This document shows, piece after piece, positions 4,178 to 34,106 of a stretch of DNA of 34,792 bases. The stretch's first letter is position 1, and each line of letters opens with the position of its first letter. The translations under genes and the position numbers were made by a program. This DNA comes from Vicinamibacteraceae bacterium (GTDB lineage Bacteria; Planctomycetota; Phycisphaerae; Phycisphaerales; UBA5793): the NCBI GenBank assembly GCA_011525805.1, contig WYBR01000026.1, forward strand, positions 1 to 34,792, given 5' to 3'. The notes below the pieces were generated by a model. The model was not told the DNA's origin, did not search any database, and saw nothing but the letters and a program-made list of their open reading frames with translations.

Positions 4178-4186
4178 GGGAGTTCC

Positions 4187-8168: not shown

Positions 8169-8233
8169 GATTCAGGCCTTCCCGTTGACTGCAATGCCCG
8201 GTTGAGTCACTCCTTGACGCCGTCGCCCGCGCT

Positions 8234-19300: not shown

Positions 19301-19620
19301 GTCCGCGCCCAGTGGCGCAGCAGATCCTTCGTCACCGGACTGGCGCCGCGATAGTCCGCCGCCCGCCATCGCTTCACATCATCCCGCAGCGCGTTGACGA
19401 GCGGCAGGTCGTCGAACTGCTCATCGGCGAAGAGCCGCTGCTGCTGCGACCCGGTGCGCTCCGTCTTGAAGTAGTATCCCGCAGGCCGCCTGTGCCCCGC
19501 CCGCTTCGGCACGCCGGTGTCGCGGTCGTACAGCCAGTGGTCCCCCGGCTCCTCGTAGGGGTTGCAGAGGATCGGATTCTCAACGGGCTGGAGCGGAATG
19601 TCCTCTGCTTGCCTACTCAT
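16399..19620 (-). CDS. Type III-like restriction Res subunit: SF2 helicase plus PD-(D/E)XK nuclease
   Basis: A 1073-residue ATP-dependent restriction subunit. Walker A MATGSGKT (residues 193-200), DEAD-box-type LNDEGHH (about 325), motif III LSATPFY (about 390), and motifs V/VI in LTEGWDANN and QVVGRGLRRMDY (about 645-675) define an SF2 translocase. A PD-(D/E)XK nuclease lies near the C-terminus: YEPDFLV then LVLEIKG (about 985-1005). An acidic/basic low-complexity insert (EDVEDVLGENGDDEDEQ, then PRRRGRSSKPKKR) separates the two RecA-like lobes. This matches the large Res proteins of the family annotated as BPTD_3080-type restriction endonucleases. A GTG at 19662 overlaps the TIR stop (GTGA) and could be a coupled start; the ATG at 19620 was chosen because the family usually begins close to the ENPILCNPYEEP block. 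The partner Mod is two genes upstream. Confidence 0.85.
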   Translation of the reverse strand: MSRQAEDIPLQPVENPILCNPYEEPGDHWLYDRDTGVPKRAGHRRPAGYYFKTERTGSQQQRLFADEQFDDLPLVNALRDDVKRWRAADYRGASPVTKDLLRHWARTDRPRRLFFCQREAVETVIYLAEMRFAGRGRSLGFNPLLTDDDLDKLLRGERPSFKATGGSKDWYPRLVDQPADEALLGLRRIGCKMATGSGKTVVMSMLIAWAFCNRGRNPRSAEFPNAVLVCCPNLTIKERLQVLRPEHGDNYYAEFDIVPAKHRDLMGCGKVLVTNWHALTLASEHSESGSTYRVVDKGEEDSCSFTERVLRDIGGLDRLPIMVLNDEGHHCYRQRPDDAADGAEDDAATDEATEEDVEEARIWLGALDRINNCSAAGAGERGISACVDLSATPFYIKGSGHPEGSPFPWLISDFGLVDAIESGIVKIPRLPVSDTTGRPDPQYFRLWQNITDDLEPGERLPGKRKGKPKPEVVYRKAQGALTQLAGQWLERFQLIQEATPGKEREPPVLIIVCDNTDVAEEFFRRISGEREEEIVTEEDVEDVLGENGDDEDEQPRRRGRSSKPKKRTVYGRGEVFPEYFSNTAERKYTIRIDSRLLAEAESGEPGKKRSDAADELRRVVSTVGKRGQPGEHVRCVVSVAMLTEGWDANNVTNILGLRAFGSQLLCEQVVGRGLRRMDYTPDPETGLLHPEYVDVYGIPFSVIPFKGRPTKATAGEDRPKNHVRALPERAHMRMEFPVVEGYVFALRRNLIRCDIESMEPLALEPNIEPTETVVAMTVGYAEGHTTSLANPFPISRQTRGTYYERNHIETIKFEIARRVMECLLVGVAGSEKSERHARVLRLQSRHQLFPQVYRCVDEYIRSKVDDRGCPLQEIGLERYARPIIERLVDRIEPDDEQGEPPLLPVLNRTKPTGSTDDVDFKTVRPCRATRSSHIDQVVLDTETWEASAAFRLESAVDAGHVRFYARNEGMAFSIPYEYQGITHGYEPDFLVRLADGTTLVLEIKGFEDNETGAKHDAAKRWISAVNNWGRLGQWRFHVCRDPAVLLEEVVRLLAIPNLDGRSSGSLQSSWIWC

Positions 19621-19658
19621 CCAGATTCCGATCTGTGCTCCTTGGCGTTCGCACCCAT

Positions 19659-20708
19659 TCACTCGAAAATCGGCGCGGAACCCAATGGAGGTGGCTGATA
19701 CTCCGGTACCTCATACAGCTCTCGTAGCAGTTCATTAAACCTTGTCCCCCGCCAATCAACACAAGACATATCAATATACTTGGCGCTCCCTAAGTACGAT
19801 GGGAGCAGTGATCCGCGACCCGGTGCCTTCTTTCGTACAACAGGGACAAACCTCCGCTTGTTTGCCTCTGCTTCCGTGTAGAGCGAAGCACTTACGACTG
19901 TTTCGAACCCGACGCCTCCCTTCCGCGCGTTCGCTTTCTCGACATATTCGGGAGTGCATACGATAATAATCTTGTCGCAGTCGCGACATCCTCGTTCCAT
20001 GAAATGCAAGACTTCTTCTCCAGCATGAAGGTGCCACCGGTCTAGCATTACCCATACGCCTTGCCGCACGAGCTCCTCGGCGAGCCTCACAACCCAATCC
20101 GTGTGCTCCTCATCGTCCCACGAGTAGGAAATGAATGCCCGCGGCGTCTTTGGATTTCGCATTTGCGCATCTTTCTCAGCAACACCAAGAGGCGAACGAT
20201 GTACACTCTCGATGACCTCCAAGCCGCCACCCCAGGGGCTCGAGCTGAACCGTTTGCCACGCGTCAAGAGCGGCCGCCATCGACGCGGCTTGTACAAGTG
20301 CTGCGGTGACCACACTTGTGCGCGCATGTCGTAAATGCCAAGCGCGAAGTCGGGCGGAACAGTCCATCGGATCGTTGTGCTGCGCACCTGTCCCTTGGGA
20401 ATCTGATGGAGTCTGGCGTGGCTCCGATCAGCAAATGGTGAATCGCGATCGCTATCGAAGAGAATCGTGAACGGTAGATAGGGGCTTCGCAATTGCGCGA
20501 CCACATAGATTGTGCCCTGGCGCAGACCGTTGTTTCTGACCGTAGTTGCGAATGTGACGATGTCTCCTTGGTGAACGATACGGCGCACTGAGCGATGTTC
20601 TGTGATCTCAAAGCTCCATCCGCGAAACGTAATCACGTTCCACCACTTTTGCAGAGTCCTTCGAAGTTCTCCACGACGGTATCGGGTTGACTGCGATTGG
20701 TTATCCAC
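19659..20708 (-). CDS. TIR/SEFIR-domain protein with N-terminal beta domain, embedded between Mod and Res
   Basis: A 349-residue protein. Residues ~30-170 look like an Ig-like beta sandwich (FEITEHRSVRRIVHQGD, then VTFATTVRNNG). Residues 189-335 form a TIR/SEFIR domain: RAFISYSWDDEEHTDWV at the start, then VWVMLDRWHLHAGEE, then KIIIVCTPEYVEKANARKGG followed by VGFE. E269 of VGFE lies where TIR NADases keep their catalytic Glu; this is by-eye and unproven. Bacterial TIR effectors usually consume or rearrange NAD+ when a partner senses infection. The gene starts at GTG with GGGAG 11 nt upstream, begins 15 nt after the Mod stop and ends against Res. One 60-nt line (19741-19800) counts 47% GC, far below its neighbours, suggesting later insertion. 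Confidence 0.82.
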   Translation of the reverse strand: MDNQSQSTRYRRGELRRTLQKWWNVITFRGWSFEITEHRSVRRIVHQGDIVTFATTVRNNGLRQGTIYVVAQLRSPYLPFTILFDSDRDSPFADRSHARLHQIPKGQVRSTTIRWTVPPDFALGIYDMRAQVWSPQHLYKPRRWRPLLTRGKRFSSSPWGGGLEVIESVHRSPLGVAEKDAQMRNPKTPRAFISYSWDDEEHTDWVVRLAEELVRQGVWVMLDRWHLHAGEEVLHFMERGCRDCDKIIIVCTPEYVEKANARKGGVGFETVVSASLYTEAEANKRRFVPVVRKKAPGRGSLLPSYLGSAKYIDMSCVDWRGTRFNELLRELYEVPEYQPPPLGSAPIFE

Positions 20709-20723
20709 GACGGCGCGAACTCC

Positions 20724-23700
20724 CTACAGCCCCACCACCCGCATCACCTCATTCCCCCTCGGGTCAATCACCTTCACCGCCACCGTCTCGTGCCGGCCCT
20801 TCGGGAACGGCAGGCTCGTCGTCCCTGAGAACGCCTCGAACCGCTCCGCGTCGATCGGGCCGCCCGGGCCATTTAGCGCCCGGCTCAACTTCTCCCACGC
20901 CGAGCGATCGGGGAAGAACGCCTGGCTGATGCAGAACGTCCGGCCGTCGTAGTCGCTGTCGAGGAACCACGCCGCCACCTTGTCGGCGTTCGTCGGGATG
21001 ACCTCGTTGCTCACCGGGTCGTAGAGGTCCACGCCCTCCATCGTCACCGTGAACTCGCCCTCAGGCGGCTCGCCCTTCGCCAGGTCGCCGAACGACCCCG
21101 CCGGGCCCGGCCCGTTCACGCGCACCCGCGGCTGGCCGAACACGGTGAACAACTGGCTGCCCGGCTGCTCCTTGAGCAGGCCGTTCATCCCCGGATTCAC
21201 ATCGGGCCGGATGTTGGCCATGTGGACGCGCAGGCGATGCCCGCCGGCGGTTCGCAAGCCCTTCTCGCCGCCGACCTCATCAATCACCGAAGTCGCCGCT
21301 CCATCGAAGGAGAAGCCCGCGAGCACGAGGTCGTCGTATTGCACCCGCGCCGCCGCCCGCACACACTGCTCGACCATCTTGGCCGTCACCGGACCGTACT
21401 GCGGGCCGAAGACGACGACGACGTTTGCCCGCCCCTGCGGGTCGCTGTCCTCTTCGCCTTCGATGGTCCAGCGCCCCTCGGCGTGGAACACCTCCCCCGA
21501 GCCGCTCTCGTAGAGCGGGTCGAGGCGCGACCAGACCATCTGCCGGTTGCCGAGGAAGCGCACGCCGTCGCGGCGCAGGTGATCGAACATCTGCTTGAGG
21601 TAGGCCGCTGCGTTGCGCGCCTCGACATCATCGCGCCCCTCGACGATTCGCATGACCCGCGCCGGCTCTCCCTCCTCGTGAAACGCCCCAAGTTCCTCAG
21701 GCGCGCCGGCGAACTCCGGATCATCCGTCCGCGCCGCCACCTCGCCCAGGCTCATCTCCGGCGGCTGCACCGCTTCCACGGTGAACGGCCCGCTCACCCG
21801 CGTCACGCCCTTGACGATTTCCGGCTGATCGACGAGTTCCTCCTGATCGGCGTTGGCGGCGATGCAGGCGTTCACTTCATCCATCTTCGCCCGCCACGCC
21901 TGCCGGTACGCGCTCACCGCCTCCGAGAGCGCCGACGGCCAGTCGGGATCGGTGTCGAAGGGAACCTGCCAGTGCTCCCAGCCCGTTCCGCCCTCGGCCA
22001 CACTGCTCGGGCCCACCTGCGCCCGCGCGGGAATGCGCTCGGTCAGTGCGGCGACCTGCTTCTTCGTCGGGCTCTTCTTCGTGCCCGCGAAGGCCGCCGC
22101 CAGGGCCGATTCGATCATCGCCCGCGTCGCGCCGGGCAAAAGCCATCGACGGTGGTCGGCGTCCGTCGGCGCCCTCCAGCCTTCAGCTGCGATCTTCGCG
22201 GCGAGTTTCCCCGCGAGCGCGGCCCGCTGTTTGTCCGTCACCTTGACCAGCGCTGCATTGCACCGGGCGAGACGGTCATCGAGGATCGGCTCGTGCCGTG
22301 CGAAGATCGGATCGAGTTCGGACCGCTGGGCGATGCTCCGCAGTGTGATGTGCGGCACCGTCCTGCACTTGAATGTGCATGGGCCCTGCACGCCGTCGGC
22401 CCCGTTGCTCAGCCAAGGGCCGGCGGGGTTGCGCTTCTGGTCTTCATCGTTGATCGGCCGCAACTCGTGATAGTCGAACTTGACGGTGAGAAGTCGCTGG
22501 CGCGCGATGGCGAGAGCGACGCGGCTGGTGTCGATCGTGATCCACCGCCGGCCCCACTGCTCAGCGACAAACGCCGTCGTACCGCTCCCGCACGTTGGGT
22601 CCAGTACGAGGTCGCCGGGGTCGGTGGTCATGAGCATGCAGCGCTTGACGGCTTCTGTCGCCGTCTGTACGACGTAGACCTTTGGGTCGGCGCGGCTCTG
22701 TATTCCGCCAATGTCCATCCACACGTCGCTGAACGGGAATACCGGAAAATCATCGAGGAATCGAACGTATCCAAGGGAATCGCCCGTGATCGCGACTCGG
22801 TCGGCCGCCAAGAGTCGGCGCATTCCTTCCTCGTTCGTTTTCCATCGATTTCGCATGCTCGGTAGGAACGAGCGTCCACCCACCGGAACGGGAAACCAGC
22901 AGGCCGCGCCTTCACCCTTCTCTCTGCCAATGCTTTGACTCGTGATATTGTCGGTACGAAAGACCCTCGCGGCGTCATCACTTTCAAGTTGTGAGGATGG
23001 AGCGCGATATCCCGTCACGGATTCGGCTTGATCGTACTTGCCGCCCCCGGCGCCGCCCACAACTTTCGTTGCAAACATCTCGCGATACTTCACCGCTTCC
23101 TTGTCGCGGGCATACCAGATCAGATGATCGACGGTACTGGGAAGGAGCAATACTGTCGCACTTGACGTCTTCGAGAACGCGATCTGCGCAACAAAGTTCG
23201 TCGTTCCAAAGACCTCGTCAAGCAGATTGCGCACACGATGCAGATTCTCGTCGCTGATCTGCACAAGGATGCTGCCCGTATCCGCCAACAGCTCACGGGC
23301 GACAATCAGTCGATCACGGAGGTACGCCAGGTATGAATGAATCCCTAGATGCCACGTATCGCGATAGGCCTTGACCATCTCCGGCTCGCGCGTTAGGTCG
23401 CTTTCCTTGTCCCTGACATCGCGCCGGCCGACTTCAGACTGAAAGTTGCTCGCGAATTTGATCCCGTAGGGCGGGTCCATGTAGATCATCTGCACCTTGC
23501 CGGCGAGGCCCTCGCGGCGGGCCAGCGAGGACATCACCGCCAGCGAGTCGCCGAGGATCAGCCGGTTCGTCCAGTCGATGTCGTGGCGGTAGAACTGCAC
23601 CGCCTCGTGGTACTCCTGCTCGGGATCGGCGAAGAGGCTGCGCTCCACATCCTGCCGCGCGGCTATCTTCAGAATTGCCTGGGCGCTGACGCGCTCGTGG

Positions 23701-24251
23701 ATGTGCAGGGCGACGGGATCGACCTCGAGATGGCCGCGCTCGTGCTGCTCGCGTTTGCCCGCCCACTCGAGCCACGGCTCGCGATTGTCGAGCGCCTCGC
23801 GGAGGATGGCCGCTTCGTCTTCACTGAGCGGCTCGCGGCCGGCCTTGTCGATGAGCGCGGCGATGGCGGCGGCGGCGCGATCGGCGTCGGCCGAGGGATC
23901 GAACCGCAGCACCGGCGCCAGATGGGGCGAGTAGGCGTAGCGGGCCTTGGGGATCGCCGGCACCGTCCCCTCGGCCGCGATCTTGGCCGGCGGATTGTTC
24001 TTGCGCGTCGAGGTCTTGTGCCGGTAGTCGGCGGCGGGGAGCGACGCGTCGGCTGCGGTACGGGACGAGCTGGACGCGGAGCGGGGTGGGCTGGGTGCGG
24101 CAAGGGGCAGTTCGCCGTCGGCTGCGGCCTTGCCCGCGAGCCTGTCGCCGGAGGCGGCCCCGCCGCCGCGCGGCCGGGGGGTCGTCCGCTTCGACCGCCC
24201 CGCCCCGCCCGACTTGCCGCCGCTCTGCGCTTTGCGTCGTTTGGCCACCAT
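20724..24251 (-). CDS. Type III-like Mod: beta-class adenine-N6 DNA methyltransferase
   Basis: A 1175-residue site-specific DNA methyltransferase. Catalytic motif IV is DPPY (259-262, in QMIYMDPPYGIKF) and the SAM motif I is LVLDPTCGSGTTAF (548-561). The order IV before I marks the beta class used by type III Mod subunits. Motif VIII-like GSILVQISDENLHRVRNLLD (residues ~326-345) and the likely target-recognition region lie between them. The first ~100 residues are low complexity, Lys/Arg/Ala/Pro-rich. The C-terminal ~550 residues form a long extension, longer than classical Mod (~600-650 aa in total), as in Mod partners of the BPTD_3080-type Res. GGAG lies just before the ATG. It leads the minus-strand operon, and its product should protect self DNA and give target specificity. 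Residues ~275-520 have clearly lower GC than the flanks. Confidence 0.87.
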   Translation of the reverse strand: MVAKRRKAQSGGKSGGAGRSKRTTPRPRGGGAASGDRLAGKAAADGELPLAAPSPPRSASSSSRTAADASLPAADYRHKTSTRKNNPPAKIAAEGTVPAIPKARYAYSPHLAPVLRFDPSADADRAAAAIAALIDKAGREPLSEDEAAILREALDNREPWLEWAGKREQHERGHLEVDPVALHIHERVSAQAILKIAARQDVERSLFADPEQEYHEAVQFYRHDIDWTNRLILGDSLAVMSSLARREGLAGKVQMIYMDPPYGIKFASNFQSEVGRRDVRDKESDLTREPEMVKAYRDTWHLGIHSYLAYLRDRLIVARELLADTGSILVQISDENLHRVRNLLDEVFGTTNFVAQIAFSKTSSATVLLLPSTVDHLIWYARDKEAVKYREMFATKVVGGAGGGKYDQAESVTGYRAPSSQLESDDAARVFRTDNITSQSIGREKGEGAACWFPVPVGGRSFLPSMRNRWKTNEEGMRRLLAADRVAITGDSLGYVRFLDDFPVFPFSDVWMDIGGIQSRADPKVYVVQTATEAVKRCMLMTTDPGDLVLDPTCGSGTTAFVAEQWGRRWITIDTSRVALAIARQRLLTVKFDYHELRPINDEDQKRNPAGPWLSNGADGVQGPCTFKCRTVPHITLRSIAQRSELDPIFARHEPILDDRLARCNAALVKVTDKQRAALAGKLAAKIAAEGWRAPTDADHRRWLLPGATRAMIESALAAAFAGTKKSPTKKQVAALTERIPARAQVGPSSVAEGGTGWEHWQVPFDTDPDWPSALSEAVSAYRQAWRAKMDEVNACIAANADQEELVDQPEIVKGVTRVSGPFTVEAVQPPEMSLGEVAARTDDPEFAGAPEELGAFHEEGEPARVMRIVEGRDDVEARNAAAYLKQMFDHLRRDGVRFLGNRQMVWSRLDPLYESGSGEVFHAEGRWTIEGEEDSDPQGRANVVVVFGPQYGPVTAKMVEQCVRAAARVQYDDLVLAGFSFDGAATSVIDEVGGEKGLRTAGGHRLRVHMANIRPDVNPGMNGLLKEQPGSQLFTVFGQPRVRVNGPGPAGSFGDLAKGEPPEGEFTVTMEGVDLYDPVSNEVIPTNADKVAAWFLDSDYDGRTFCISQAFFPDRSAWEKLSRALNGPGGPIDAERFEAFSGTTSLPFPKGRHETVAVKVIDPRGNEVMRVVGL

Positions 24252-24524
24252 TCACTCCAAGCCACAGGCGGGCCGCCCCGTTTCGACTCTAGCGTCTCAT
24301 CGGGGCGATTTGGCCGAATCCACCTCGTGTACAGGGTATGCCAAACTGCTGCGGCCGGCAGCGAGATCACTGACAGAGCACTGCTGACGGCGCAGCCGCT
24401 CCGACTGCATCGTCGCCGCCGAGCAGGACGTACCCGAACTGACCCCATATCATGGCCGGTGCGGCCCGCCCCCGTTCCCCGGCGATTCGCAAAGGGGGCG
24501 CCGCTATAGCGCCTGTGAAGCACG
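24252..24524. promoter_or_regulatory. Divergent intergenic region between the two defence arms
   Basis: These 273 nt separate the Mod operon (left) from the UvrD/DISARM operon (right), so both leading promoters are expected here. I could not find a consensus -35/-10 pair or a clear operator palindrome on either strand. No regulator gene lies in either operon. Confidence 0.5.
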
Positions 24525-26387
24525 ATGCTGGATTGGGATGACGATCAACGCGAAGTCATTGAGACCGATCCGGATGCACGGATTCTGGTGGAAGCCGGTC
24601 CGGGCACTGGCAAGACCGCTGTAGCGTGCGCGCGAGTGGCTTCGCTGATCAATGACTGGGAGGTTCAGCCAGCCAACATTTTGCTCCTGAGCTTCACTCG
24701 CACCGCTGTTGCGGAAATGCGCAGCAGAATCGCGAGCTATGTGGGTGATCAGCATCGCGCAGCGGCAGTCAAGATCAGTACACTCGATTCAGCAGTATGG
24801 TACCTGATCTGTGGCTTCGACCAGAAGGCGGCGGATGTGTTCGGGGGATATGAAGCAAACATCCTGGCCATCCTGCAAAGGATCGAGGCAGGCGACTCTG
24901 ATCTGATGGACTATCTGAGCCGCTATCAGCACATCATCGTTGACGAGGCGCAGGATCTGACCAGTGCGCGGGCGAAGCTCGTAATCGCGCTGATCAAGGC
25001 ACTTGCCCCGGACTGCGGCGTCACCATCTTTGCCGATCCCCATCAGGCCATCTACGGCTTTACGAACGACGCTGATGAGCGAGAACCCGATGCAACAATC
25101 ACCTTCCTCGATCTGCTGCGGCGCGAAGGAGCCTTGAAGTTCAGGGGCATGGAGCTCAAGACGCTCCACCGCACAAACGAAACTGCTCTGGCATCGCTGA
25201 TGTCGACGCTGCGCTGTGTAGTGTCAACCAACAGCTCACCCCCGGCGGACCAGCATGCATTGTTGAAGAATCGCCTGCACAGTCTTGCGGGGCCGATCGA
25301 ACAGAATCGAACAGATCTGCCGAAGCACGCTGACGGTCGATCCGACCTGCTCATTCTGTACCGCCGCCGAGCGGAGGTGCTGTTGACTTCTTCGCTGTTC
25401 TGCTCCGCCGGCATTACACACAGGCTCCGACTTTCCGGGCTGCCCTCGTGCCTGCAGCCGTGGCTCGGACGCGTGTTCTTCGACTGCCGTGGTGCCCGGA
25501 TGTCCTTGACGGAGTTCCGCACTCTCTGGGCTGAGCGCGACTGCGCGTCGCTTGGCGGCACATCGGCGGAGCAGGACTGGGCTATGCTTTATCGAATCGC
25601 GTCTGTCGACAAAGATTCGATCGACATTCATCGGCTCCGTCAGGTGCTCGCCCGATCCCGACCTCCATCTGAATTGTGCGTGCAGGACTGCGTGCGCGAG
25701 GGGCCGATCCTAGGGACCATTCATGCCTCTAAGGGGCGTGAGGCGGACACGGTCTACCTCTTTGTGTCCGATGAAACGCCCGAGGAGGCGGTGGAAGAGG
25801 AGTCCCGCGTGGTGTACGTCGGCGCAACCCGTGCAAAAAAGAAGCTTCATGTGGCAGCCCCAGGGCCGGTCTATGCCAAATCGTTGAAAGGCTCTGGCCG
25901 GGCTTTCTGGGTCAGGCCCGACGGCCGATCTGCCCAAGTTGAAATCGGGCGGGACGGCGACCTCGTACCCTCATCGCCAGTCAGTAAGCGCCTTCATGCG
26001 AAACAGGCTGACGCGTTCGCTGCACAGGACATGCTGGCGACCCGCGCCAACGCGACCACCAAAGTGACGGCGCACACAAGCGCAGAGTACGACTGGAAGT
26101 ACCGAGTCAGGTACGCAGAAGGCGTCGGAGGTCCGTGGATCGGTGAGTTCTCGGAGGACGTGGGGCGCGATCTCTGGGCCGTCATCAAGATCACCGGACA
26201 TTACATGCGGCCGCCATTGGAGATGAATCACCTGTTCGCAGTATCTACACGGACAGTCGTTCTCGATCGAGATCACCCCGAGCTCAGCGATCTCCACTTT
26301 CCATACCAGTTGTCGGGATTCCTGCTTGCTCCAGTCATTCGCGCGTGGACGATCGCATACTTCAAGTTTCGTAAAGGTAGAAGATGA
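24525..26387 (+). CDS. UvrD-like SF1 helicase coupled to DISARM
   Basis: A 620-residue superfamily 1 helicase. Q-motif region LDWDDDQREVI (2-12), Walker A AGPGTGKT (24-31), motif Ia LLLSFTRTAVAEM (53-65), Walker B HIIVDEAQD (136-144), motif III IFADPHQAIYGF (168-179), motif V IHASKGREADTVYL (399-412) and motif VI VVYVGATRAKKKL (429-441) are all intact, so it should be an active ATP-driven translocase. It is shorter than UvrD/Rep (~670-720). Residues 450-620 form a tail I do not recognise, with YDWKYRVRYAEG and a hydrophobic C-terminal part. Its TGA overlaps the ATG of drmA (ATGA), so the two are translated together. It sits directly ahead of drmA, where accessory DISARM genes are often found, but its motifs are plainly UvrD. 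No strong ribosome site precedes its ATG. Confidence 0.87.
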   Translation: MLDWDDDQREVIETDPDARILVEAGPGTGKTAVACARVASLINDWEVQPANILLLSFTRTAVAEMRSRIASYVGDQHRAAAVKISTLDSAVWYLICGFDQKAADVFGGYEANILAILQRIEAGDSDLMDYLSRYQHIIVDEAQDLTSARAKLVIALIKALAPDCGVTIFADPHQAIYGFTNDADEREPDATITFLDLLRREGALKFRGMELKTLHRTNETALASLMSTLRCVVSTNSSPPADQHALLKNRLHSLAGPIEQNRTDLPKHADGRSDLLILYRRRAEVLLTSSLFCSAGITHRLRLSGLPSCLQPWLGRVFFDCRGARMSLTEFRTLWAERDCASLGGTSAEQDWAMLYRIASVDKDSIDIHRLRQVLARSRPPSELCVQDCVREGPILGTIHASKGREADTVYLFVSDETPEEAVEEESRVVYVGATRAKKKLHVAAPGPVYAKSLKGSGRAFWVRPDGRSAQVEIGRDGDLVPSSPVSKRLHAKQADAFAAQDMLATRANATTKVTAHTSAEYDWKYRVRYAEGVGGPWIGEFSEDVGRDLWAVIKITGHYMRPPLEMNHLFAVSTRTVVLDRDHPELSDLHFPYQLSGFLLAPVIRAWTIAYFKFRKGRR

Positions 26388-29300
26388 TGCACGCTGCTTT
26401 CAGGGACTCACTGCTGCGTCAGATGAGCGAGGACTTGGTCGGGCCGCTTACTCCGGATGAGCGCCTGGATGATCGGCCTTCCGACCGCTATCTCACCGGA
26501 ATCCTGTTTCCACAACGCAGCATGATTCCCGAGGAAGAGGACGAGGCGCTGCGTGGTGCGGAGGATGATGCTGAGGACGCGAGCGATTCGGCACAGGAAG
26601 CGGTCGCGCTGAACCGAACCGCGAGGCCGGCCGTCGCGGGCATATCCTTCGCGGTCAGCGAATCGGAAGGCACCATGCCGGCGCTTGCTGCCCGCGTCAC
26701 GTGCGGCACATATGAACCACTTTGGCTTGACAGTGACGGGACGCCGTTGCAGCAGCCGGGACCGGACTACCTGGCGAGGTGGAAGAGGCACGCTCACGAT
26801 ATCCAGTTGCCGCCAATACAGCTGCGATTCGGCACGCTACCTCCAATCGATCTGGCGACACACGGTCTCACGGGTCTGCAGCTGCGCTTGCAGGTTGCTC
26901 CGGCAGCAGCCTGCATTACTGTCACAGCGGTTCTCGTCAATGCTTGGGACGACGGTGAATCCCGGCTGGAAAACGAGAAGCGGACATTCTTCCAAGTTGA
27001 ACTGAGCATCTGCGTTGCAAGCGGTGCGTCACTTGTGGCTCGCCCATCCAGAAAAGGAGCGGAAGAACCAGAGTTCCAGCTGATATATCGTAACTGCTGT
27101 GAATATGCCGTCGGCCACACGTGCTCCGCACGATGGGACCTTGATGCCGGCGGCCGGGTTGTTCGTGTCGCAACGACTTGGCTTCCATCCCAGGCGGTGC
27201 CCGCGGTTTCGGCGGATGGCGATCCGTGCCTTCGCCGACTTCAGCTGGGCGAGCGAGTCAAGCCGCTATCGGCGGAGTGGCTCGCCACGGCTCCGAAAGA
27301 CGACATCATTGCCAGCCTGCGAATGTTTCCTGACATCTATTCGGCGTGGCTAGATGATCGTGAGGCAGAGATTGAGGCACTCCCAGCCACTCTGCAGGCA
27401 CAGGCCGCTCTCCACATTCGTACATGCCGGATCGGGTGCGCAAGGATGCGAGGTTCAATTGACCTGCTGAGGGATGATCAGCACGCGCTCAGCGCTTTCC
27501 GGTTCGCAAATCGCGCGATAGCAGTTCAGCGTCGCTGGTCTCGCGGCGATGTCGATCTGAAGTGGCGTCCCTTCCAGATCGGGTTTCAGCTTTTGACGCT
27601 GCAATCGCTCGTTGATCGATTGCACGCCGATCGCCAGACGATGGATCTGCTCTGGTTCCCCACAGGTGGTGGGAAGACCGAAGCATATCTCGGTCTGGTT
27701 GCCTTTGTGCTGGCCTACAGGCGCTTGGTGCACGGCAGCAGTGGCGCTGGCGTCGGCGTCATCATGCGCTATACGCTGCGTCTTCTCACTATTCAGCAGT
27801 TTCAGCGGGCGGCCGCGCTGATCTGCGCATGCGAATACATGCGCCGTGGCAATCAACTACCCGAACAGCACCTTGCTCTCGGCGATGTGCCCTTCTCAAT
27901 CGGCCTCTGGGTTGGGGGAGGTGCCACACCCAACAGCGTCGATGAAGCAGCCGGGAAACTCACGGCTTCGAGTGATCCGACGCCATGCCAGGTCCGATCG
28001 TGCCCCGCATGTCGACAGGAGTCTCTGGAGTGGTTCTGCGAGCATCGAACCAATCAGCGTGGGCGACAGGTGCCCGACCGCATTCTGGTGAAGTGCACCG
28101 ACACGACGTGTCCAATCGGAAGCTCCGGCAATCCGTTCCTTCCCTTGTGGACCGTCGATGAAGATGTCTATAGGGAGACGCCCTCGCTGCTGATCGGCAC
28201 GGTGGACAAGTTCGCGCAGATTGCGCGAAAGCCGGCGGCAACGGCCTCGTTCTTCGGGGCGCACCATGATCCGCCGGAACTGATCATTCAGGACGAGCTA
28301 CACCTGATCTCTGGCCCGTTGGGAACGCTCGCCGGACTATATGAGACGGCGATCGATGAGCTTTGCGCGCGCGTCGTGCGACGCGGCGAAGATGTCATTC
28401 GGGTTATCCCGAAGGTTATTGGATCAACGGCCACCATCCGGCGCGCCAGCGATCAGATCCAATCGCTTTTTGCCCGGTCGACGTACCAGTTCCCTCCGCC
28501 AGTGCTCGATGCGGCGAACTCGTGCTTTGCGGTACATGACACCGAACGGCCCGGACGTCTTTATGTCGGAATCACATCTGCCGGACGGTCGCCCAAGTTC
28601 GCGCTTCAGGCGGTCAGCGGTTCGCTTCTTCAGGCCGCGTGCGATCCCACCGTTCCGGATGCAGAACGTGATCCGTGGTGGACGCAGGTCGTCTATTTCA
28701 ATTCACTCCGGGAACTGGGCGGAGCGCTGGTGATGCTGCAGGACGACGTGCCCGCATCGATCAATCTGTACGCCAAGGTTCGCCAGCGATCCCCACGTGT
28801 CGTCAATCTGCTCGATGAGCTCACGAGCAGAAAGACGCAGGTGGAACTTCGGGACACACTGCACGATCTTGAGAAGGACTATGCAAGCGGTGCGGCGTTC
28901 GATGCTGTACTGGCGACCAACATGATCAGCGTCGGAGTGGATGTCCCGCGACTGAGCCTGATGGTAGTGAACGGGCAACCCAAGCAGATCGCGGAGTACA
29001 TTCAGGCGACAAGTCGCGTCGGACGCGAACACCCGGGTCTGATCGTAACTGTTTATAACAGCGGCCGTGCCAGGGACCGATCGCACTTTGAGACATTCGC
29101 TTCTTGGCATGCCGCTCCTTATCGCGACGTTGAGGCGACGAGCGTGACGCCATTCGCCTCACGTGCACAGGACAAGGCGCTTCACGCAGTACTCGTTACT
29201 CTTGTCCGACATCGGATGCCCAGTCTTCGGGACCGACCGGTACTTACGCCAGCTCTGCGCCAGCAGATCGAGCGCGAGATTCTCCCGGCCATTATCGCTC

Positions 29301-29605
29301 GTGTTACCTACACCGACTCAGTCGAAGTGGCGGCCGTTCAGGCGAAACTGCAAGCTCTGCTCGATCACTGGGAGACTCGGACGTCCCGCTGGACTTCAGG
29401 AACCGGCCAGCCGAACTACTGGTGGGACCAGAGGCCGGATTTGACTCTTCTGATGTCAGCGGAGCAGTATGCGGCACGAGCGGCAGCCGGCTGGTCGAAC
29501 GGTGAAGTGTGGAGCACCCCCAACTCAATGCGTGATGTCGAGCCCGGAAGCCCGTTCAAGCTGATTCCACGTCTTCGCGTCGGAGGGCCCGCAGATGCCG
29601 GTTGA
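26384..29605 (+). CDS. drmA: DISARM helicase DrmA
   Basis: A 1073-residue SF2 helicase-like protein. The N-terminus has the DrmA signature: RDSLLRQMSEDLVGPL followed by an Arg/Asp-rich stretch and DRYLTGILFP. The motor carries Walker A TGGGKT (427-432), Walker B-type DELH (637-640), motif III GSTATIRRAS (about 683), motif V SVGVDVPRLSL (about 849-859) and motif VI QATSRVGR (874-881). Between Walker A and DELH lies a zinc-finger-like set of Cys (RSCPACRQ, WFCEH, VKCTDTTC). In characterised DISARM, DrmA and DrmB form a complex that loads on DNA 5' ends and is triggered by phage DNA. The start overlaps the UvrD-like stop, and the end overlaps the drmB start by 11 nt, so the operon is tightly coupled. 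Confidence 0.9.
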   Translation: MMHAAFRDSLLRQMSEDLVGPLTPDERLDDRPSDRYLTGILFPQRSMIPEEEDEALRGAEDDAEDASDSAQEAVALNRTARPAVAGISFAVSESEGTMPALAARVTCGTYEPLWLDSDGTPLQQPGPDYLARWKRHAHDIQLPPIQLRFGTLPPIDLATHGLTGLQLRLQVAPAAACITVTAVLVNAWDDGESRLENEKRTFFQVELSICVASGASLVARPSRKGAEEPEFQLIYRNCCEYAVGHTCSARWDLDAGGRVVRVATTWLPSQAVPAVSADGDPCLRRLQLGERVKPLSAEWLATAPKDDIIASLRMFPDIYSAWLDDREAEIEALPATLQAQAALHIRTCRIGCARMRGSIDLLRDDQHALSAFRFANRAIAVQRRWSRGDVDLKWRPFQIGFQLLTLQSLVDRLHADRQTMDLLWFPTGGGKTEAYLGLVAFVLAYRRLVHGSSGAGVGVIMRYTLRLLTIQQFQRAAALICACEYMRRGNQLPEQHLALGDVPFSIGLWVGGGATPNSVDEAAGKLTASSDPTPCQVRSCPACRQESLEWFCEHRTNQRGRQVPDRILVKCTDTTCPIGSSGNPFLPLWTVDEDVYRETPSLLIGTVDKFAQIARKPAATASFFGAHHDPPELIIQDELHLISGPLGTLAGLYETAIDELCARVVRRGEDVIRVIPKVIGSTATIRRASDQIQSLFARSTYQFPPPVLDAANSCFAVHDTERPGRLYVGITSAGRSPKFALQAVSGSLLQAACDPTVPDAERDPWWTQVVYFNSLRELGGALVMLQDDVPASINLYAKVRQRSPRVVNLLDELTSRKTQVELRDTLHDLEKDYASGAAFDAVLATNMISVGVDVPRLSLMVVNGQPKQIAEYIQATSRVGREHPGLIVTVYNSGRARDRSHFETFASWHAAPYRDVEATSVTPFASRAQDKALHAVLVTLVRHRMPSLRDRPVLTPALRQQIEREILPAIIARVTYTDSVEVAAVQAKLQALLDHWETRTSRWTSGTGQPNYWWDQRPDLTLLMSAEQYAARAAAGWSNGEVWSTPNSMRDVEPGSPFKLIPRLRVGGPADAG

Positions 29606-31427
29606 GCTGAACGAAATACGACGCAGCCAAGTGATTACGACGTTCGGGCCAGGCGCCATCGTCGACTTTCGCGCAGGCAAACACGGTGGTGCAGCCGTAT
29701 CGGTCGTCGTTGCCGGCCTTGACGGATGGGACGAGCATGCGCAACCCGCGGGACTGAATCATCCGCAGACAACAAGCGAGCCGCGCCTCGAACGGCTGCT
29801 TCACACAGATGGCTTCCGGCTGCCGCCGGCTGTTCCAAAGGAGAACAAGGTCTACGTCAACGGTGCCCGATTGCCTGGAATTCGCTTTCCGCGCTGGCTT
29901 CATTGCCCAGAGTGCTATGGCCTGCGAGAGGCTAGGTTCTGGAACGAAGATCCCGGTGACGCGGCTCTCTATTGCGGAACATGTTCATCGCGACGCGGAA
30001 GACACATCCATGTCGTTCCCGCCCGGTTCATCATGATCTGCGAGAATGGCCATCTCGACGAATTCCCTTGGCACTGGTGGGTGCGCCACAGGGATTCGTG
30101 CAAGAACAAACAGGCCTTGACTTTGAAGAGTGAGGGAGCCGGCCTTGCGGGCTTGCTCCTCAGGTGTACGGCCTGCCAGCAGGCACGGTCAATGGATGGC
30201 TGCTTCTCTCGCGATGCGATCACGTTTCGCTGCAGTGGAGAAAGGCCTTGGCTGGGCGATCGGGAACCGGACTGTGACAGACAACCGCGGGCCGTACTGC
30301 GTGGAGCATCCAACGTCTACTTCCCAGTGGTTGTTTCAGCTCTGAGCATACCACCGTGGTCAGATCAGATTCAAAAGCACCTTGGCATCTTTTGGCCTCG
30401 ACTTCTGCATGCAGACGATGACACCAAGCGACGCGCCATCATCGAAGCGATGGATCTGGCGGTGCCACTGCAAATGTCTGTCGATCAGCTTCTCGAACAG
30501 GTACGCACGCGAATCCGTCAGATCGAGATTCAGGATCAAGAGGCGCTGCGATTCGACGAATACACGCAGTTCACGCTGGGTCAGACTGCCGGCGGGGTCC
30601 ACCATGACGAATCGGAATTCGAAACACATCGCGAGAACGTTCCTCCGGAACTTCGGCGCTTCTTTGACCACCTTGTGCGTGTGACTCGGCTGCGCGAGGT
30701 TCGCGCGTTGCGCTCATTCACACGGATACGCCCGCCCGCCGACTGGCGCGACGGCGGAGATGTTACCTTTGCGCCGATCACGCGGCAGCAGAGAAACTGG
30801 CTGCCCGCCACGGAGGTTCGGGGGGAAGGAATCTTCCTGGCGTTCAACGAGCAGGAGCTTGGCGCATGGGAGGGCCGATCGGCCGTTCTGCAACAGCGAG
30901 CTGCCGAACTCCACGAAGCGTATGCCGCAGAATATCGAGAGCGGCATGGTTCCAAGGCTGTCGTTCCGCGAACGATCAGTCCACGGATGCTGCTCGTTCA
31001 CTCGTTTGGACACGCCCTCATCCGGCAGCTGTCACTCGAGTGCGGCTACTCCACATCTTCGCTCCGCGAGCGCCTGTACGTGGACAGCCATCCGCAGCGC
31101 CGCATGGCTGGCGTGCTCATCTACACCGCCACTCCCGATTCCGATGGAACACTGGGAGGTCTGTGTCGCCAAGGCTTGCCTTCCCGAATCGTGCGGCTCG
31201 TGGAGGGAGCCGTGCAGGCGATGCAATGGTGTTCAAGCGATCCGTTGTGCATTGATCGCGTGCAGTCTCCCACCGAAACCTTGAACGCAGCAGCATGCCA
31301 TGCCTGCCTTCTCGCCCCGGAGACGTCATGCGAGGAGTTCAATCGGCTACTCGATCGCGCGACCCTAGTGGGAATCCCCGCGGACCGCACCCTCGGATTC
31401 TTCAGCGCTTTGTTGCAACAGCCATAG
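29595..31427 (+). CDS. drmB: DISARM protein DrmB (DUF1998 family)
   Basis: A 610-residue protein with the DrmB start VELNEIRRSQVITTFGPGAI then VDF, and two Cys-pair zinc sites early on (HCPECYG, CGTCSSRRGR, CTACQQARSMDGC). The DUF1998 core begins at about residue 465 with LLVHSFGHALIRQLSLECG (H469, H473) and ends with the family's Cys cluster (WCSSDPLCID, then ACHACLLAPETSC). DrmB partners DrmA; the DrmAB complex binds DNA and is the conserved heart of every DISARM type. The start lies inside the 3' end of drmA. At ~610 residues it is a normal length for the family. Confidence 0.9.
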   Translation: MPVELNEIRRSQVITTFGPGAIVDFRAGKHGGAAVSVVVAGLDGWDEHAQPAGLNHPQTTSEPRLERLLHTDGFRLPPAVPKENKVYVNGARLPGIRFPRWLHCPECYGLREARFWNEDPGDAALYCGTCSSRRGRHIHVVPARFIMICENGHLDEFPWHWWVRHRDSCKNKQALTLKSEGAGLAGLLLRCTACQQARSMDGCFSRDAITFRCSGERPWLGDREPDCDRQPRAVLRGASNVYFPVVVSALSIPPWSDQIQKHLGIFWPRLLHADDDTKRRAIIEAMDLAVPLQMSVDQLLEQVRTRIRQIEIQDQEALRFDEYTQFTLGQTAGGVHHDESEFETHRENVPPELRRFFDHLVRVTRLREVRALRSFTRIRPPADWRDGGDVTFAPITRQQRNWLPATEVRGEGIFLAFNEQELGAWEGRSAVLQQRAAELHEAYAAEYRERHGSKAVVPRTISPRMLLVHSFGHALIRQLSLECGYSTSSLRERLYVDSHPQRRMAGVLIYTATPDSDGTLGGLCRQGLPSRIVRLVEGAVQAMQWCSSDPLCIDRVQSPTETLNAAACHACLLAPETSCEEFNRLLDRATLVGIPADRTLGFFSALLQQP

Positions 31428-31438
31428 AAAGAAGCACC

Positions 31439-32155
31439 TTGGGCCTTCCCCGCGACATTGTCGAGGTATCACGAACGCTTATGTGCGATCCGTTCGATAG
31501 CGGCGCAAGCGAAGCTATCAGCGGAATGGCACCCACATCGGCGTTGTTGCCCTACCTCTCGCATGTCAGCCGTGATGCCGACCCTCCCTCAATTCTGCTG
31601 TTGATCTTCCAGTGTCTCGCAATTCAGCGTGCCGAGCTCCAACGTACTGCCTTGGCCGCGGAGTTCATTGCGACAGTACCTAGCGGAAGCGCTCCCGGCA
31701 TACGGCCTACGGGAGTGGTCGTGCGCGAGATGGTATCCGCGGCCAAGCGCAGCATACTGACGCTGGGTTATGTCATCACGGCTGAAGGCGGGATGCTAAG
31801 TCTGCTGCAGGCAGCGGCCAGCCGATTCGTGGCCATCGACGTTGTGTGTGATCGAGAAGTCAGGTCGGCCGGTCTCATTGCTGCGGCATGGCCCCAAGGG
31901 ATACCCCTTCCGAATCTCTTTACCAATGCCCCAGCACCGGGAGCATCATCGTTGGCGAAGATGCACTGCAAGCTGTTACTGGTCGACTCAAGTGACCTGC
32001 TGATTACATCCGCTAACTTCACTTTTCACGGCATGGCCGCCAACATCGAGTTCGGCATTCGTGTGCGCGGACAAGAAGCCATGCTTGCTCAGAGATTCTT
32101 TGACTATCTGCGACAACAACAGCTGGTGCTGCCAGTCGCTCAGTCTGGCGCATAG
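31439..32155 (+). CDS. drmC: DISARM phospholipase-D-like nuclease DrmC
   Basis: A 238-residue protein, 11 nt after the drmB stop. The TTG at 31439 is chosen because it places the family-like N-terminus LGLPRDIVEVSRTL at the start, behind a GAAAGAAG stretch. An ATG at 31481 would lose 14 of those residues, and the ATG further upstream lies inside drmB. The PLD signature is MHCKLLLVDSSDLLITSANF: H176, K178 and the downstream D of a single HKD motif, so a dimer would be needed for a full active site. PLD-family members cut phosphodiester bonds. DrmC is part of the DISARM core, although reported work on one system found it not essential. Its 3' end overlaps the oppositely oriented vsr gene by 16 nt. 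Confidence 0.85.
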   Translation: MGLPRDIVEVSRTLMCDPFDSGASEAISGMAPTSALLPYLSHVSRDADPPSILLLIFQCLAIQRAELQRTALAAEFIATVPSGSAPGIRPTGVVVREMVSAAKRSILTLGYVITAEGGMLSLLQAAASRFVAIDVVCDREVRSAGLIAAAWPQGIPLPNLFTNAPAPGASSLAKMHCKLLLVDSSDLLITSANFTFHGMAANIEFGIRVRGQEAMLAQRFFDYLRQQQLVLPVAQSGA

Positions 32156-32556
32156 CCGCTGATGCTCTCGAGCAGCTCGGCAAGTCGATCCTGATGGCGC
32201 GTCTGACACTCCCACACAACGACCTGACGCCAGCCGGCCTTCCGGAGAAGCGCCCTCGCTTCAGCGTCCCGAGCTGTGTTTCTCCGGAACTTCTCCTTCC
32301 AGAACGAGACGCGCGTCCGCGGGGTATAGGCATATCTGCATCCCGGATGCCGGTGCCAAAAGCAGCCATGCACGAAGATCACAGTTCGGTACTTTGGCAG
32401 GACGATGTCCGGCCTGCCCGGCAGATCTCTGCGATGCAGCCGGAATCGATACCCCATGCGGTGAAGCAGCGAGCGAACCACCTTCTCCGGCTTCGTGTCG
32501 CGCCCCCGAATGCGCGACATGTTCCAGCTTCGATGTTCTTTGCTGATCCGGTCCAT
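32140..32556 (-). CDS. vsr: Very short patch repair (Vsr) mismatch endonuclease
   Basis: A 138-residue protein with all Vsr landmarks: MSRIRGRDTKPEKVVRSLLH at 13-32, RRDLPGRPDIVLPKYRTVIF (42-61) with the catalytic-type Asp (D50), VHGCFWHRHPGC (62-73) with zinc/active-site His and Cys, and a C-terminal GWRQVVVWEC. Vsr nicks 5' of the T in T:G mismatches that arise when 5-methylcytosine deaminates, limiting mutation at methylated sites. The ATG overlaps the methyltransferase stop by one base (TAATG), so it is translated after it. In E. coli Vsr acts at Dcm (CCWGG) sites. Pairing here with a DISARM-type methyltransferase suggests a similar methylated site. Confidence 0.93.
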   Translation of the reverse strand: MDRISKEHRSWNMSRIRGRDTKPEKVVRSLLHRMGYRFRLHRRDLPGRPDIVLPKYRTVIFVHGCFWHRHPGCRYAYTPRTRVSFWKEKFRRNTARDAEARALLRKAGWRQVVVWECQTRHQDRLAELLESISGYAPD

Positions 32557-34106
32557 TACTCGCCAAGCAGGTCTGCAACGATTCCCGCAATCTGCCGCGC
32601 GAGAAGCGGAGGCACGGCATTTCCGACCTGCGCGTACTGTGCGGTGCGGTTTCCGCAGAAGAAGTAGTTGTCCGGGAACGTCTGAAGCCGCGCCGCCTCG
32701 CGCACCGTGAGGCTGCGGCACTGTGAAGGATCGTAGTGAATGTAGTAGTGACCATCTTTGGCGATGTGCGCTGTGATCGTCGTCGACGGACGGCCGCGAG
32801 TCTGGACTCGGAAGCGATCCGCAAACATCCCGTGCCCGTTCAGGGCGTGGACTATATTGGTGTGGCTCGGCCAGAGCGATGCGGGGAAGTCGCGAAGCAC
32901 CGGTGAACGCCCATGCACCCTCGCGAAGCACGCGGCAAAGAGATAGCGATGCAGGTCGCTGTCCATGTGGCCACGGGTTGCGTGATTGCATGCTCCGCCG
33001 ATTCGCGGATCGACATACCACTTGTGGGCCAGCCCGGAGTCGACCTCGCCCGGAACATGCTCTCCTCCCCTGTCCTGTCGCGGCCGCGTGAGCGAATCGA
33101 GAGCCGCTTCAATCTGCGATCTGACCGACTCATCAGTGGATCGACGCAGCCACGGCGAGCGCCGGACGGCTCGCAGAGTGTCGATCCAGTCATCCGCAGT
33201 GTCCGTGCCCTTTGACCGTCCGCTTCGGAGACGCGGAAGTCCGTCCAGCACAGCCTCGGCTGGGACGGCCTCCACGCGAGGCAGCACACCGGGCTGTTCC
33301 CGAGCATGGTCGTCACGCACACCGAGCAGGATGATGCGGTGCCGGGCCTGTGGTATCCCGTGATCCTCGGTCCTCACGACGAAGTCGGCGAGATTGGAGT
33401 CTTCGAACATGCCGTGCCGCACAACGGAGAACACCTGATACTCGTGCGCGCCGCCGTTCCGGCGGATGCTGCGGCCCTCACGTCGAAGTGCGTTTCGAGG
33501 CGACCGCAGATCATCCAGTATGCGCTGAAAGACTCGCTGATCGTTCAACGTCGCCGACAGCAGGCCCTTGACGTTCTCCATGACGAACACGGCCGGCCAG
33601 TGGTCGGCGATGATCTGGAGGTACTCCACATACAGGGTCTGCTTCTCATCATTCGCGGGATCGTACTTCTCAACACCCTTGTTCCGGGAGCGACCGATGA
33701 GTGAGTACGCTTGGCACGGCGGACCTCCGATCAGCACCCATGGATCGCTCTTGCCGATCGCAGCTTCAACGCGCCGCCGAACCGTGAGATGTTGTTCCGC
33801 TCCAAGCGTGGCGCGCCATGCCACGGCCGTTGCGGCGTTTGCGGCCGCCGGGTGTCGCTCGAATAGCTCGAATTGAGTGATCTCGCCGCGAAGCGCCCGG
33901 TAGTAGTCCTCGGGTATCGAGTCCGGATCGAACTGCCGGAAGAAGCACCTCAGCAGAAGCGTCTCGTGGGCTGCAGCGTCCTTCTCAATCGAAAGCGAGA
34001 CCTGGAAGGGACTCCTGCCACCCCTGGTGTACGAAGCGAATCCTTCGCCGAGGCCTCCGGGGCCGGCAAAGAGGTCAATCACGGGAATTGACGCGGATGG
34101 ACTCAT
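32556..34106 (-). CDS. drmMII: Cytosine-5 DNA methyltransferase, DISARM DrmMII type
   Basis: A 516-residue C5 methyltransferase. Motif I VIDLFAGPGGLGEGF (9-23), motif IV GGPPCQAYS with nucleophile C131, motif VI MENVKG (E177), motif VIII QARHRIILLG, motif IX RLQTFPDNY and motif X QVGNAVPPLLA are all present, so it should be active. Target recognition should lie between VIII and IX. The start at 34106 puts motif I near the N-terminus as usual. The frame continues upstream to 34202 with another ATG at 34163, but I see no ribosome site there. It is orthologous in type to the methylase of class 2 DISARM, which is reported to modify CCWGG and protect host DNA. It faces drmABC and is followed by vsr in the same transcript. 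It could be an independent Dcm-Vsr pair that merely lies next to drmC. Confidence 0.88.
   Translation of the reverse strand: MSPSASIPVIDLFAGPGGLGEGFASYTRGGRSPFQVSLSIEKDAAAHETLLLRCFFRQFDPDSIPEDYYRALRGEITQFELFERHPAAANAATAVAWRATLGAEQHLTVRRRVEAAIGKSDPWVLIGGPPCQAYSLIGRSRNKGVEKYDPANDEKQTLYVEYLQIIADHWPAVFVMENVKGLLSATLNDQRVFQRILDDLRSPRNALRREGRSIRRNGGAHEYQVFSVVRHGMFEDSNLADFVVRTEDHGIPQARHRIILLGVRDDHAREQPGVLPRVEAVPAEAVLDGLPRLRSGRSKGTDTADDWIDTLRAVRRSPWLRRSTDESVRSQIEAALDSLTRPRQDRGGEHVPGEVDSGLAHKWYVDPRIGGACNHATRGHMDSDLHRYLFAACFARVHGRSPVLRDFPASLWPSHTNIVHALNGHGMFADRFRVQTRGRPSTTITAHIAKDGHYYIHYDPSQCRSLTVREAARLQTFPDNYFFCGNRTAQYAQVGNAVPPLLARQIAGIVADLLGE

What the first reader, a model, noticed from the sequence alone, without database searches (positions are those of the whole stretch)
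24525..34106. DISARM variant with a UvrD-like helicase in front of drmA and a Dcm/Vsr pair facing the core
Seen: an intact UvrD-like gene overlaps drmA by ATGA; drmA overlaps drmB; drmC follows by 11 nt; a DrmMII-type C5 methyltransferase and vsr come from the other strand and overlap drmC by 16 nt. Known: class 1 DISARM carries drmD and drmMI, class 2 carries drmE and drmMII. Here drmMII is present, but neither drmE nor drmD is recognisable and a UvrD-like motor holds the position ahead of drmA. Inference: this is a distinct DISARM subtype in which an SF1 helicase acts with DrmAB, or replaces DrmE. Caveat: I cannot rule out that DrmE itself is distantly UvrD-related.
Basis: partly seen in the sequence, partly recalled or inferred. 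Interest (0 to 1): 0.78.

Follow-up and report, generated by a model that had tools for sequence, protein, structure and literature searches.

The report
UvrD-led DISARM-like anti-phage operon
This stretch carries an uncatalogued kind of DISARM bacterial anti-phage operon, in which a second, unrelated DNA motor (a UvrD-like helicase) always sits directly in front of the DISARM helicase drmA; it recurs in at least six bacterial phyla but has not been tested at the bench.

Summary
(1) The UvrD-like protein is not DrmE: no DrmE match in the protein or its genome, hhalign probability 0.2% against seven DrmE proteins, and Acetomicrobium carries DrmE beside UvrD in one operon. (2) The pairing is not private: I found 33 loci from at least six phyla in which UvrD lies directly upstream of drmA on the same strand. 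The motifs of all 29 UvrD proteins checked are intact or near-consensus. UvrD and DrmA distances correlate at r = 0.91, and 24 of 27 UvrD-associated DrmAs form one fully supported clade. The window is atypical in one respect: of 29 loci with a readable 3' side, 22 carry a NERD-nuclease/SF1-helicase fusion after drmB; only the window and one phage-like contig carry PLD DrmC. So this is a conserved DISARM-like subtype with a swappable nuclease; 'UvrD replaces DrmE' is too simple. Mechanism (inferred): DrmAB recognises unmethylated ssDNA-tailed DNA, and UvrD supplies a 3'-to-5' motor that opens DNA for the nuclease. New variant, not a new kind.

The parts
24525..26387 (+). UvrD-like SF1 helicase (620 aa), SF1A core residues 1-462 plus an unassigned C-terminal beta-rich domain (about 446-620)
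   Evidence: PF00580 3.6e-30, PF13361/PF13538; PADLOC best GajB-type 3.9e-27; AlphaFold pLDDT 87, PcrA/UvrD/Rep Z about 23 over residues 1-465; motifs intact
26384..29605 (+). drmA, YprA-family SF2 helicase (1073 aa), Walker A GGGKT, DELH box, Cys4 in RecA1
   Evidence: NF038325 912 bits, PADLOC DrmA 2.2e-210; ATGA overlap with UvrD; invariant residues in A2
29595..31427 (+). drmB, DUF1998/MZB protein (610 aa), overlaps drmA by 11 nt
   Evidence: NF038324 532 bits vs cut-off 240; PF09369 1e-10
31439..32155 (+). drmC, PLD-family nuclease (238 aa), HKD motif HCKLLLVD; TTG start inferred
   Evidence: PADLOC DrmC 3.9e-31; PF13091 1.7e-8; NF038319 104 bits, below its cut-off of 133
32140..32556 (-). 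vsr, very-short-patch mismatch endonuclease, overlaps drmC by 16 nt
   Evidence: TIGR00632 143 bits; junction read
32556..34106 (-). DrmMII/Dcm-type C5-cytosine methyltransferase (possible upstream start at 34202)
   Evidence: PADLOC DrmMII 7.4e-82; PF00145 1.1e-40
24252..24524 (.). 273-nt intergenic region between the UvrD operon and the divergent type III-like mod gene; putative bidirectional promoter (inferred)
   Evidence: ORF map

Best explanation
It is a DISARM-like anti-phage operon of a conserved, uncatalogued subtype whose signature is an SF1A UvrD-like helicase encoded directly upstream of drmA-drmB (overlapping drmA by ATGA here). Shown by sequence: the linkage, its spread, intact motor motifs, co-divergence of UvrD with DrmA, and the swap of the 3' nuclease (NERD-SF1 in most, PLD DrmC here). 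Inferred mechanism: DrmAB loads on DNA with single-stranded 5' tails that lacks the DrmMII 5-methylcytosine mark, as shown for class 1 DrmAB. The UvrD-like protein then adds a motor of 3'-to-5' polarity on the other strand and opens or reels the invader's DNA. That exposes ssDNA for the nuclease (DrmC here, NERD-SF1 elsewhere), a two-motor-plus-nuclease logic resembling RecBCD/AddAB. The methyltransferase protects the host, and Vsr repairs T:G mismatches left by 5mC deamination.
For: 33 loci have UvrD as the nearest same-strand gene before drmA, overlapping or within 150 nt. In the genome scan, the 23 loci with UvrD E <= 3e-22 include 20 with drmA next; two more are cut by the contig end and one UvrD is truncated; in the weaker hits examined no drmA is adjacent. 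Spread over at least six phyla. UvrD/DrmA distance correlation r = 0.91 in 27 loci, 0 of 5000 permutations as high. 24 UvrD-linked DrmAs form one clade at SH-aLRT 100. Every plasmid DrmA that covers nearly the whole query at >= 44% identity to the window's has UvrD in front. The model superposes on PcrA/UvrD/Rep, which are 3'-to-5' motors (polarity from general knowledge). DrmAB biochemistry (5' overhang, 5mC reduces ATPase) is from PMC9142583. GajB, the nearest PADLOC family, is reported to sense DNA ends and promote its partner nuclease GajA (PMC10952713).
Against: I found no functional data for any UvrD-type locus. Helicase polarity and a DrmAB-UvrD contact are assumed, not tested. Operon linkage also fits a loosely coupled accessory gene. 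DrmC was reported non-essential in known DISARM (PMC9142583), and five UvrD loci carry neither NERD nor PLD after drmB, so a dedicated nuclease may not be required. Three UvrD-linked DrmAs (L067, L069, L074) fall outside the main clade in the quick tree, although one clade is not rejected (p-AU 0.49).
Confidence: 0.55

Rival explanations
1. UvrD is the sensor or licensing subunit rather than a processive motor: like GajB it detects DNA ends or ssDNA and switches DrmAB or the nuclease on, taking over the gating that the N-terminal EVE-like domain and trigger loop give in class 1 DrmA.
For: The nearest PADLOC family is GajB (3.9e-27), reported as a DNA-end sensor that promotes GajA activity. The window DrmA aligns from residue 133 of a 1284-aa DrmA (L043) onward, so it lacks an N-terminal stretch present there. 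The extra C-terminal barrel gives weak structural hits to HIRAN domains (Z 5.5 to 3k2y, 97 aligned residues; Z 3.5-4.1 to HLTF HIRAN), a domain reported to bind ssDNA and fork structures (PMC4666394).
Against: HIRAN is not supported by sequence (no Pfam hit in 16 members; hhalign 0.3%), and these Z values can reflect only a common barrel. Whether the trigger loop is absent was not tested.
Confidence: 0.25
2. UvrD is a dispensable accessory gene that travels with drmAB but acts separately, for example by clearing protein roadblocks or restarting host forks after DISARM damage.
For: Gabija, ARMADA and other systems also carry UvrD-like genes; DISARM-like operons are known to hold accessories such as ShdA (PMC10270631).
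Against: One-to-one adjacency in 33 of 33 loci, stop-start overlaps, one main DrmA clade and strong co-divergence are more than expected of a loose accessory.
Confidence: 0.17
3. The UvrD-like gene is a divergent DrmE, so this is ordinary class 2 DISARM.
For: Same position ahead of drmA, and a DrmMII-type methyltransferase is present.
Against: No NF038316/NF038323 match; hhalign probability 0.2%; DrmE and UvrD lie side by side in Acetomicrobium.
Confidence: 0.02
4. Chance neighbour: a Gabija-like or repair helicase that happens to abut a DISARM locus in this genome.
For: Best PADLOC hits are GajB.
Against: No gajA among the neighbouring genes tested, and the pairing is conserved in 33 loci across phyla.
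Confidence: 0.01

Closest known systems
DISARM class 2 (drmE-drmA-drmB-drmC-drmMII)
   Same: DrmA, DrmB, PLD DrmC, C5 methyltransferase; DrmE-type loci found here also carry Dcm/Vsr and often a NERD-SF1 gene (L138, L139, L147-L149, L167)
   Different: No DrmE in the window; UvrD-like helicase in its place ahead of drmA; DrmA is in a separate clade from DrmE-linked DrmA
DISARM class 1 (drmD-drmMI-drmA-drmB-drmC)
   Same: DrmA/DrmB/PLD DrmC order
   Different: No SNF2 DrmD or PglX-like DrmMI; DrmA shorter at its N-terminus; about 35-38% identity to full-length plasmid DrmAs annotated as DISARM
Gabija GajB
   Same: Nearest PADLOC family of the UvrD-like protein; SF1 helicase
   Different: No GajA (OLD-TOPRIM nuclease); partnered with DrmAB; extra C-terminal domain
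ARMADA type II (Bell et al. 2025, PMC12458937)
   Same: YprA-family helicase paired with a GajB-like UvrD helicase
   Different: In ARMADA the UvrD gene follows the others and carries an N-terminal RelE domain, YprA is one fused protein with a Vsr domain, and BrxHII/PglX partners are present
RT-associated helicase and NERD-helicase (PADLOC RTasHel and RTasNERD-Hel)
   Same: The UvrD-like gene and the NERD-SF1 gene of sister loci match these two models (1.7e-25 and 2.9e-55)
   Different: Here the pair accompanies DrmAB, not a reverse transcriptase

Membership tests
DISARM (core) | DrmA YprA-family helicase | tested here: met
   NF038325 912 bits, PADLOC DrmA 2e-210; below NCBI's equivalog cut-off of 950
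DISARM (core) | DrmB DUF1998 protein as a separate gene after drmA | tested here: met
   NF038324 532 bits over cut-off 240; 11-nt overlap
DISARM (core) | PLD nuclease DrmC after drmB | tested here: met
   PADLOC DrmC 3.9e-31, HKD motif; NF038319 below cut-off
DISARM (core) | DrmMI or DrmMII methyltransferase in the locus | tested here: met
   PADLOC DrmMII 7.4e-82, best of its hits, converging on drmC
DISARM (core) | Protection against phage | not testable with these tools
   Needs a bench assay
DISARM class 1 | DrmD SNF2 helicase and DrmMI in the operon | tested here: not met
   No DrmD over the cut-off in the genome; neighbouring Mod is type III-like, PADLOC MTase_III 7e-189
DISARM class 2 | DrmE in the operon | tested here: not met
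   NF038316 absent from the genome; UvrD vs DrmE profile probability 0.2%. The contig ends 590 nt past dcm, but the 5' side of the operon is complete
Gabija | GajA OLD-TOPRIM nuclease next to GajB | tested here: not met
   No GajA hit among the nine island proteins scanned
ARMADA | Fused YprA-DUF1998-Vsr protein with BrxHII-like and PglX-like partners | tested here: not met
   DrmA and DrmB are separate genes; no such partners in the window
UvrD-headed DISARM-like subtype (proposed here) | UvrD-like SF1 gene directly upstream of drmA-drmB on the same strand | tested here: met
   33 loci
HIRAN domain (UvrD C-terminus) | HIRAN fold and motif | tested here: inconclusive
   Structure Z 3.5-5.5 to HIRAN chains; no sequence support

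The most novel reading that the evidence does not exclude
Most DISARM-like systems with a short DrmA may be dual-motor machines: the SF2 DrmAB engine is nearly always teamed with an SF1 helicase (UvrD upstream, NERD-SF1, or a small SF1 gene after drmB). In this subtype UvrD may carry a HIRAN/OB-like C-terminal barrel that reads the 3' end while DrmAB reads the 5' end, so the pair would measure a DNA end from both strands.
Probability: 0.17. Interest if true: 0.78.

Novelty: new variant of a known kind. Interest (0 to 1): 0.6.

Why it matters
How DISARM destroys DNA after DrmAB recognition is unknown, and DrmC is reported to be dispensable. A subtype that always adds an SF1 motor and swaps PLD for a NERD-helicase nuclease points to DNA unwinding or translocation plus a replaceable nuclease, and gives one clean gene to delete. 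It also shows that catalogue rules keyed on DrmD/DrmE can miss a whole branch: the plasmid gene tables name these DrmAs only 'helicase-related protein' or 'DNA helicase'.

Tried and rejected
UvrD as distant DrmE: rejected. UvrD pairing private to this genome: rejected. UvrD as Gabija gajB: no gajA nearby. Middle and C-terminal parts of UvrD alone against PADLOC: no hits. C-terminal domain as HIRAN: weak structural hint only; Foldseek best E 0.68, no Pfam or PDB sequence hit, hhalign 0.3% against a three-sequence HIRAN set of low power. N-terminal extensions of longer UvrD homologues (L039, L063, L070, L053): no confident Pfam domain, and none in PADLOC for the three tested there, so no RelE as in ARMADA ArmD was seen. 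No near-identical copy of the locus on plasmids; no full-length UvrD relative in annotated phage records. No Rfam family or tRNA in the window. DrmE fragment of G106 as a plasmid probe: nothing. Ofir 2018 is not held, so class definitions come from PADLOC and Bravo et al..
Full report
OBSERVATION. UvrD-like 24525-26387, drmA 26384-29605, drmB 29595-31427 and drmC 31439-32155 run on the + strand, with overlaps of 4 nt and 11 nt and a gap of 11 nt. vsr (32140-32556) and a C5 methyltransferase (32556-34106) come from the - strand, and vsr overlaps drmC by 16 nt. The window is a whole contig of a 4.54-Mb draft genome, so genes beyond dcm cannot be seen. The 5' side is complete and bounded by a divergent type III-like restriction cassette.

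NOT DrmE OR DrmD. The UvrD-like protein has no DrmE or DrmD match in NCBIfam, and its middle and C-terminal parts have no PADLOC match; its best PADLOC families are GajB-type UvrD helicases. NF038316 (DrmE) has no match in the whole genome. DrmD has no match above its cut-off; a 306-bit SNF2 protein lies on another contig. Seven DrmE proteins were aligned (A3), and profile-profile comparison with the UvrD family gives 0.2% probability. Decisively, Acetomicrobium (L140/L066) has a DrmE protein (PF24957 DrmE_C 2.3e-42; NF038316 108 bits) directly upstream of UvrD-drmA-drmB-NERD in one apparent operon.

THE PAIRING IS CONSERVED. Plasmid tblastn gave full-length relatives directly before drmA-drmB in Shinella, Rhizobium rhizogenes and Azospirillum, and partial matches in R. 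ruizarguesonis and R. leguminosarum with the same context. A scan of about 85,000 species genomes with the UvrD alignment returned 23 loci at E <= 3e-22. In 20 of them drmA is the next gene; two end at the contig edge and one (L061) is a truncated UvrD. The weaker hits that I examined (L076-L078, L094, L099, L110, L128, L132) are UvrD genes without drmA. With the window, own-phylum and own-order genomes (L134, L049), Tsukamurella (L151) and viral-contig loci, the tally is 33 loci, all with UvrD as the nearest same-strand gene and within 150 nt of drmA. By record titles they span Alpha- and Gammaproteobacteria, Bacteroidota/Balneolota, Synergistota, Bacillota, Actinomycetota and Acidobacteriota. 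The subtype is rare: with the window's own genome counted, it turned up in 2 of 397 genomes of the class by the DrmA search and 2 of 392 of the phylum by the UvrD search.

CO-EVOLUTION. UvrD and DrmA pairwise distances correlate at r = 0.91 in 27 loci, against a maximum of 0.40 in 5000 permutations. This shows that they travel and diverge as a unit; it does not by itself show contact. Motors look intact: Walker A, DExQD, motif V and motif VI are present in all 29 UvrD proteins checked, with minor variants. In a DrmA tree, 24 of 27 UvrD-linked DrmAs form one clade (SH-aLRT 100) and the six DrmE-linked DrmAs another (97). Three divergent UvrD-linked DrmAs (L067, L069, L074) lie outside, but a single clade is not rejected (p-AU 0.49).

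ANATOMY. Of the 29 loci whose 3' side is readable, 22 carry a NERD nuclease fused to an SF1 helicase after drmB (domains PF08378 plus UvrD-type helicase; PADLOC RTasNERD-Hel 2.9e-55). Two carry PLD DrmC: the window and L171, an IMG/VR contig with holin/endolysin-like genes upstream. Five have neither. The sister locus L057 ends just after drmB; its tail has only a weak DrmC-like match (E 0.11). Dcm and Vsr are frequent neighbours, but also in DrmE loci, so they do not define the subtype.

STRUCTURE. The UvrD model (pLDDT 87) matches PcrA/UvrD/Rep over residues 1-465 (Z up to 23.5). The C-terminal 175 residues fold alone with pLDDT 90. Foldseek finds no significant match. The structural aligner puts HIRAN domains first (3k2y Z 5.5; HLTF 3.5-4.1; Rad5 3.5). 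That 3k2y is a HIRAN protein is from memory, and sequence tests do not support HIRAN. I keep this as a lead only.

MECHANISM. Shown elsewhere: class 1 DrmAB binds DNA with a 5' overhang of at least 7 nt, needs ATPase for defence, and is slowed by 5mC; DrmC is reported non-essential (PMC9142583). Inferred here: the UvrD-like SF1A motor adds 3'-to-5' activity on the other strand, opening DNA for the nuclease; the methyltransferase marks self, and Vsr repairs deaminated 5mC. Rivals are a GajB-like sensing role or a loosely coupled accessory. I hold the subtype claim at about 0.93 and the motor mechanism at about 0.5; the overall confidence given reflects both.

NOVELTY. Bell et al. [quoted passage not shown] Full-text searches found no description of UvrD-drmAB operons; the library lacks most subscription papers and I read no supplements. 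PADLOC's typed DISARM models require DrmD+DrmMI or DrmE+DrmMII. Public plasmid annotation names these DrmAs 'helicase-related protein' or 'DNA helicase'. Hence a new variant of a known kind.

Noticed in passing
window 16399-24251 (-); L037:5729-11826: Type III-like restriction cassette (BPTD_3080-family Res 891 bits, N6/N4 methyltransferase Mod) with a SEFIR/TIR gene between mod and res, divergent from UvrD. A related mod-res pair also sits directly before UvrD in Shinella.
   Followed up: partly
L140:5481-17034 (Acetomicrobium): DrmE, UvrD, DrmA, DrmB and NERD-SF1 in one apparent operon: DrmE and UvrD coexist.
   Followed up: yes
L053:9371-13803 and L055:9881-13803: Two tandem UvrD-like genes (52% identical in L053) before drmA; both keep all helicase motifs, which might mean a two-subunit motor.
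   Followed up: partly
L138, L139, L147-L149, L167: DrmE-type (class 2-like) loci carry a NERD-SF1 helicase gene between drmE and drmA; no PLD DrmC was recognised after drmB.
   Followed up: partly
L050, L052, L152, L153: Another DISARM-like layout without UvrD: drmA-drmB followed by a small (360-460 aa) SF1-helicase-like gene.
   Followed up: partly
L171:4495-13559: UvrD-drmA-drmB-drmC (PLD), the same layout as the window, on a phage-like contig next to holin and endolysin-like genes: possible phage cargo.
   Followed up: partly
L151 and L042 (Tsukamurella plasmid NZ_LR134452): UvrD-drmA-drmB operon immediately followed by ARMADA-like genes (DEAD helicase, methylase, Zn-binding YprA-like, two UvrD).
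   Followed up: no
L040:5345-11238; similar-sized gene pairs in L053, L063, L064, L068, L070: Divergent pair of about 1000-aa genes upstream of UvrD; in L040 one is a DpdE/DrmD-like SNF2 helicase (DpdE 8e-41, DrmD 2e-18), the other unknown.
   Followed up: partly
L067:7839-9287; unknown genes of similar size in L069 and L175: DnaK-like protein overlapping the UvrD start codon in Eubacterium; genes of similar size lie at the same place in L069 and L175 (not tested).
   Followed up: no
L041:12031-18661 (R. leguminosarum RCAM0626): drmA and drmB broken into several frames and UvrD shortened, while a closely similar plasmid of R. ruizarguesonis TA1 has them intact.
   Followed up: no
window 2882-9916 (-): 4Fe-4S protein, molybdopterin oxidoreductase (1189 aa) and ethylbenzene-dehydrogenase/cytochrome c protein: a respiratory cluster beside the defence island.
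   Followed up: no
L170 (G000:C76:16000-35122): DrmD-like SNF2 protein (306 bits to NF038317, below cut-off) elsewhere in the same genome, flanked by large unassigned genes.
   Followed up: no
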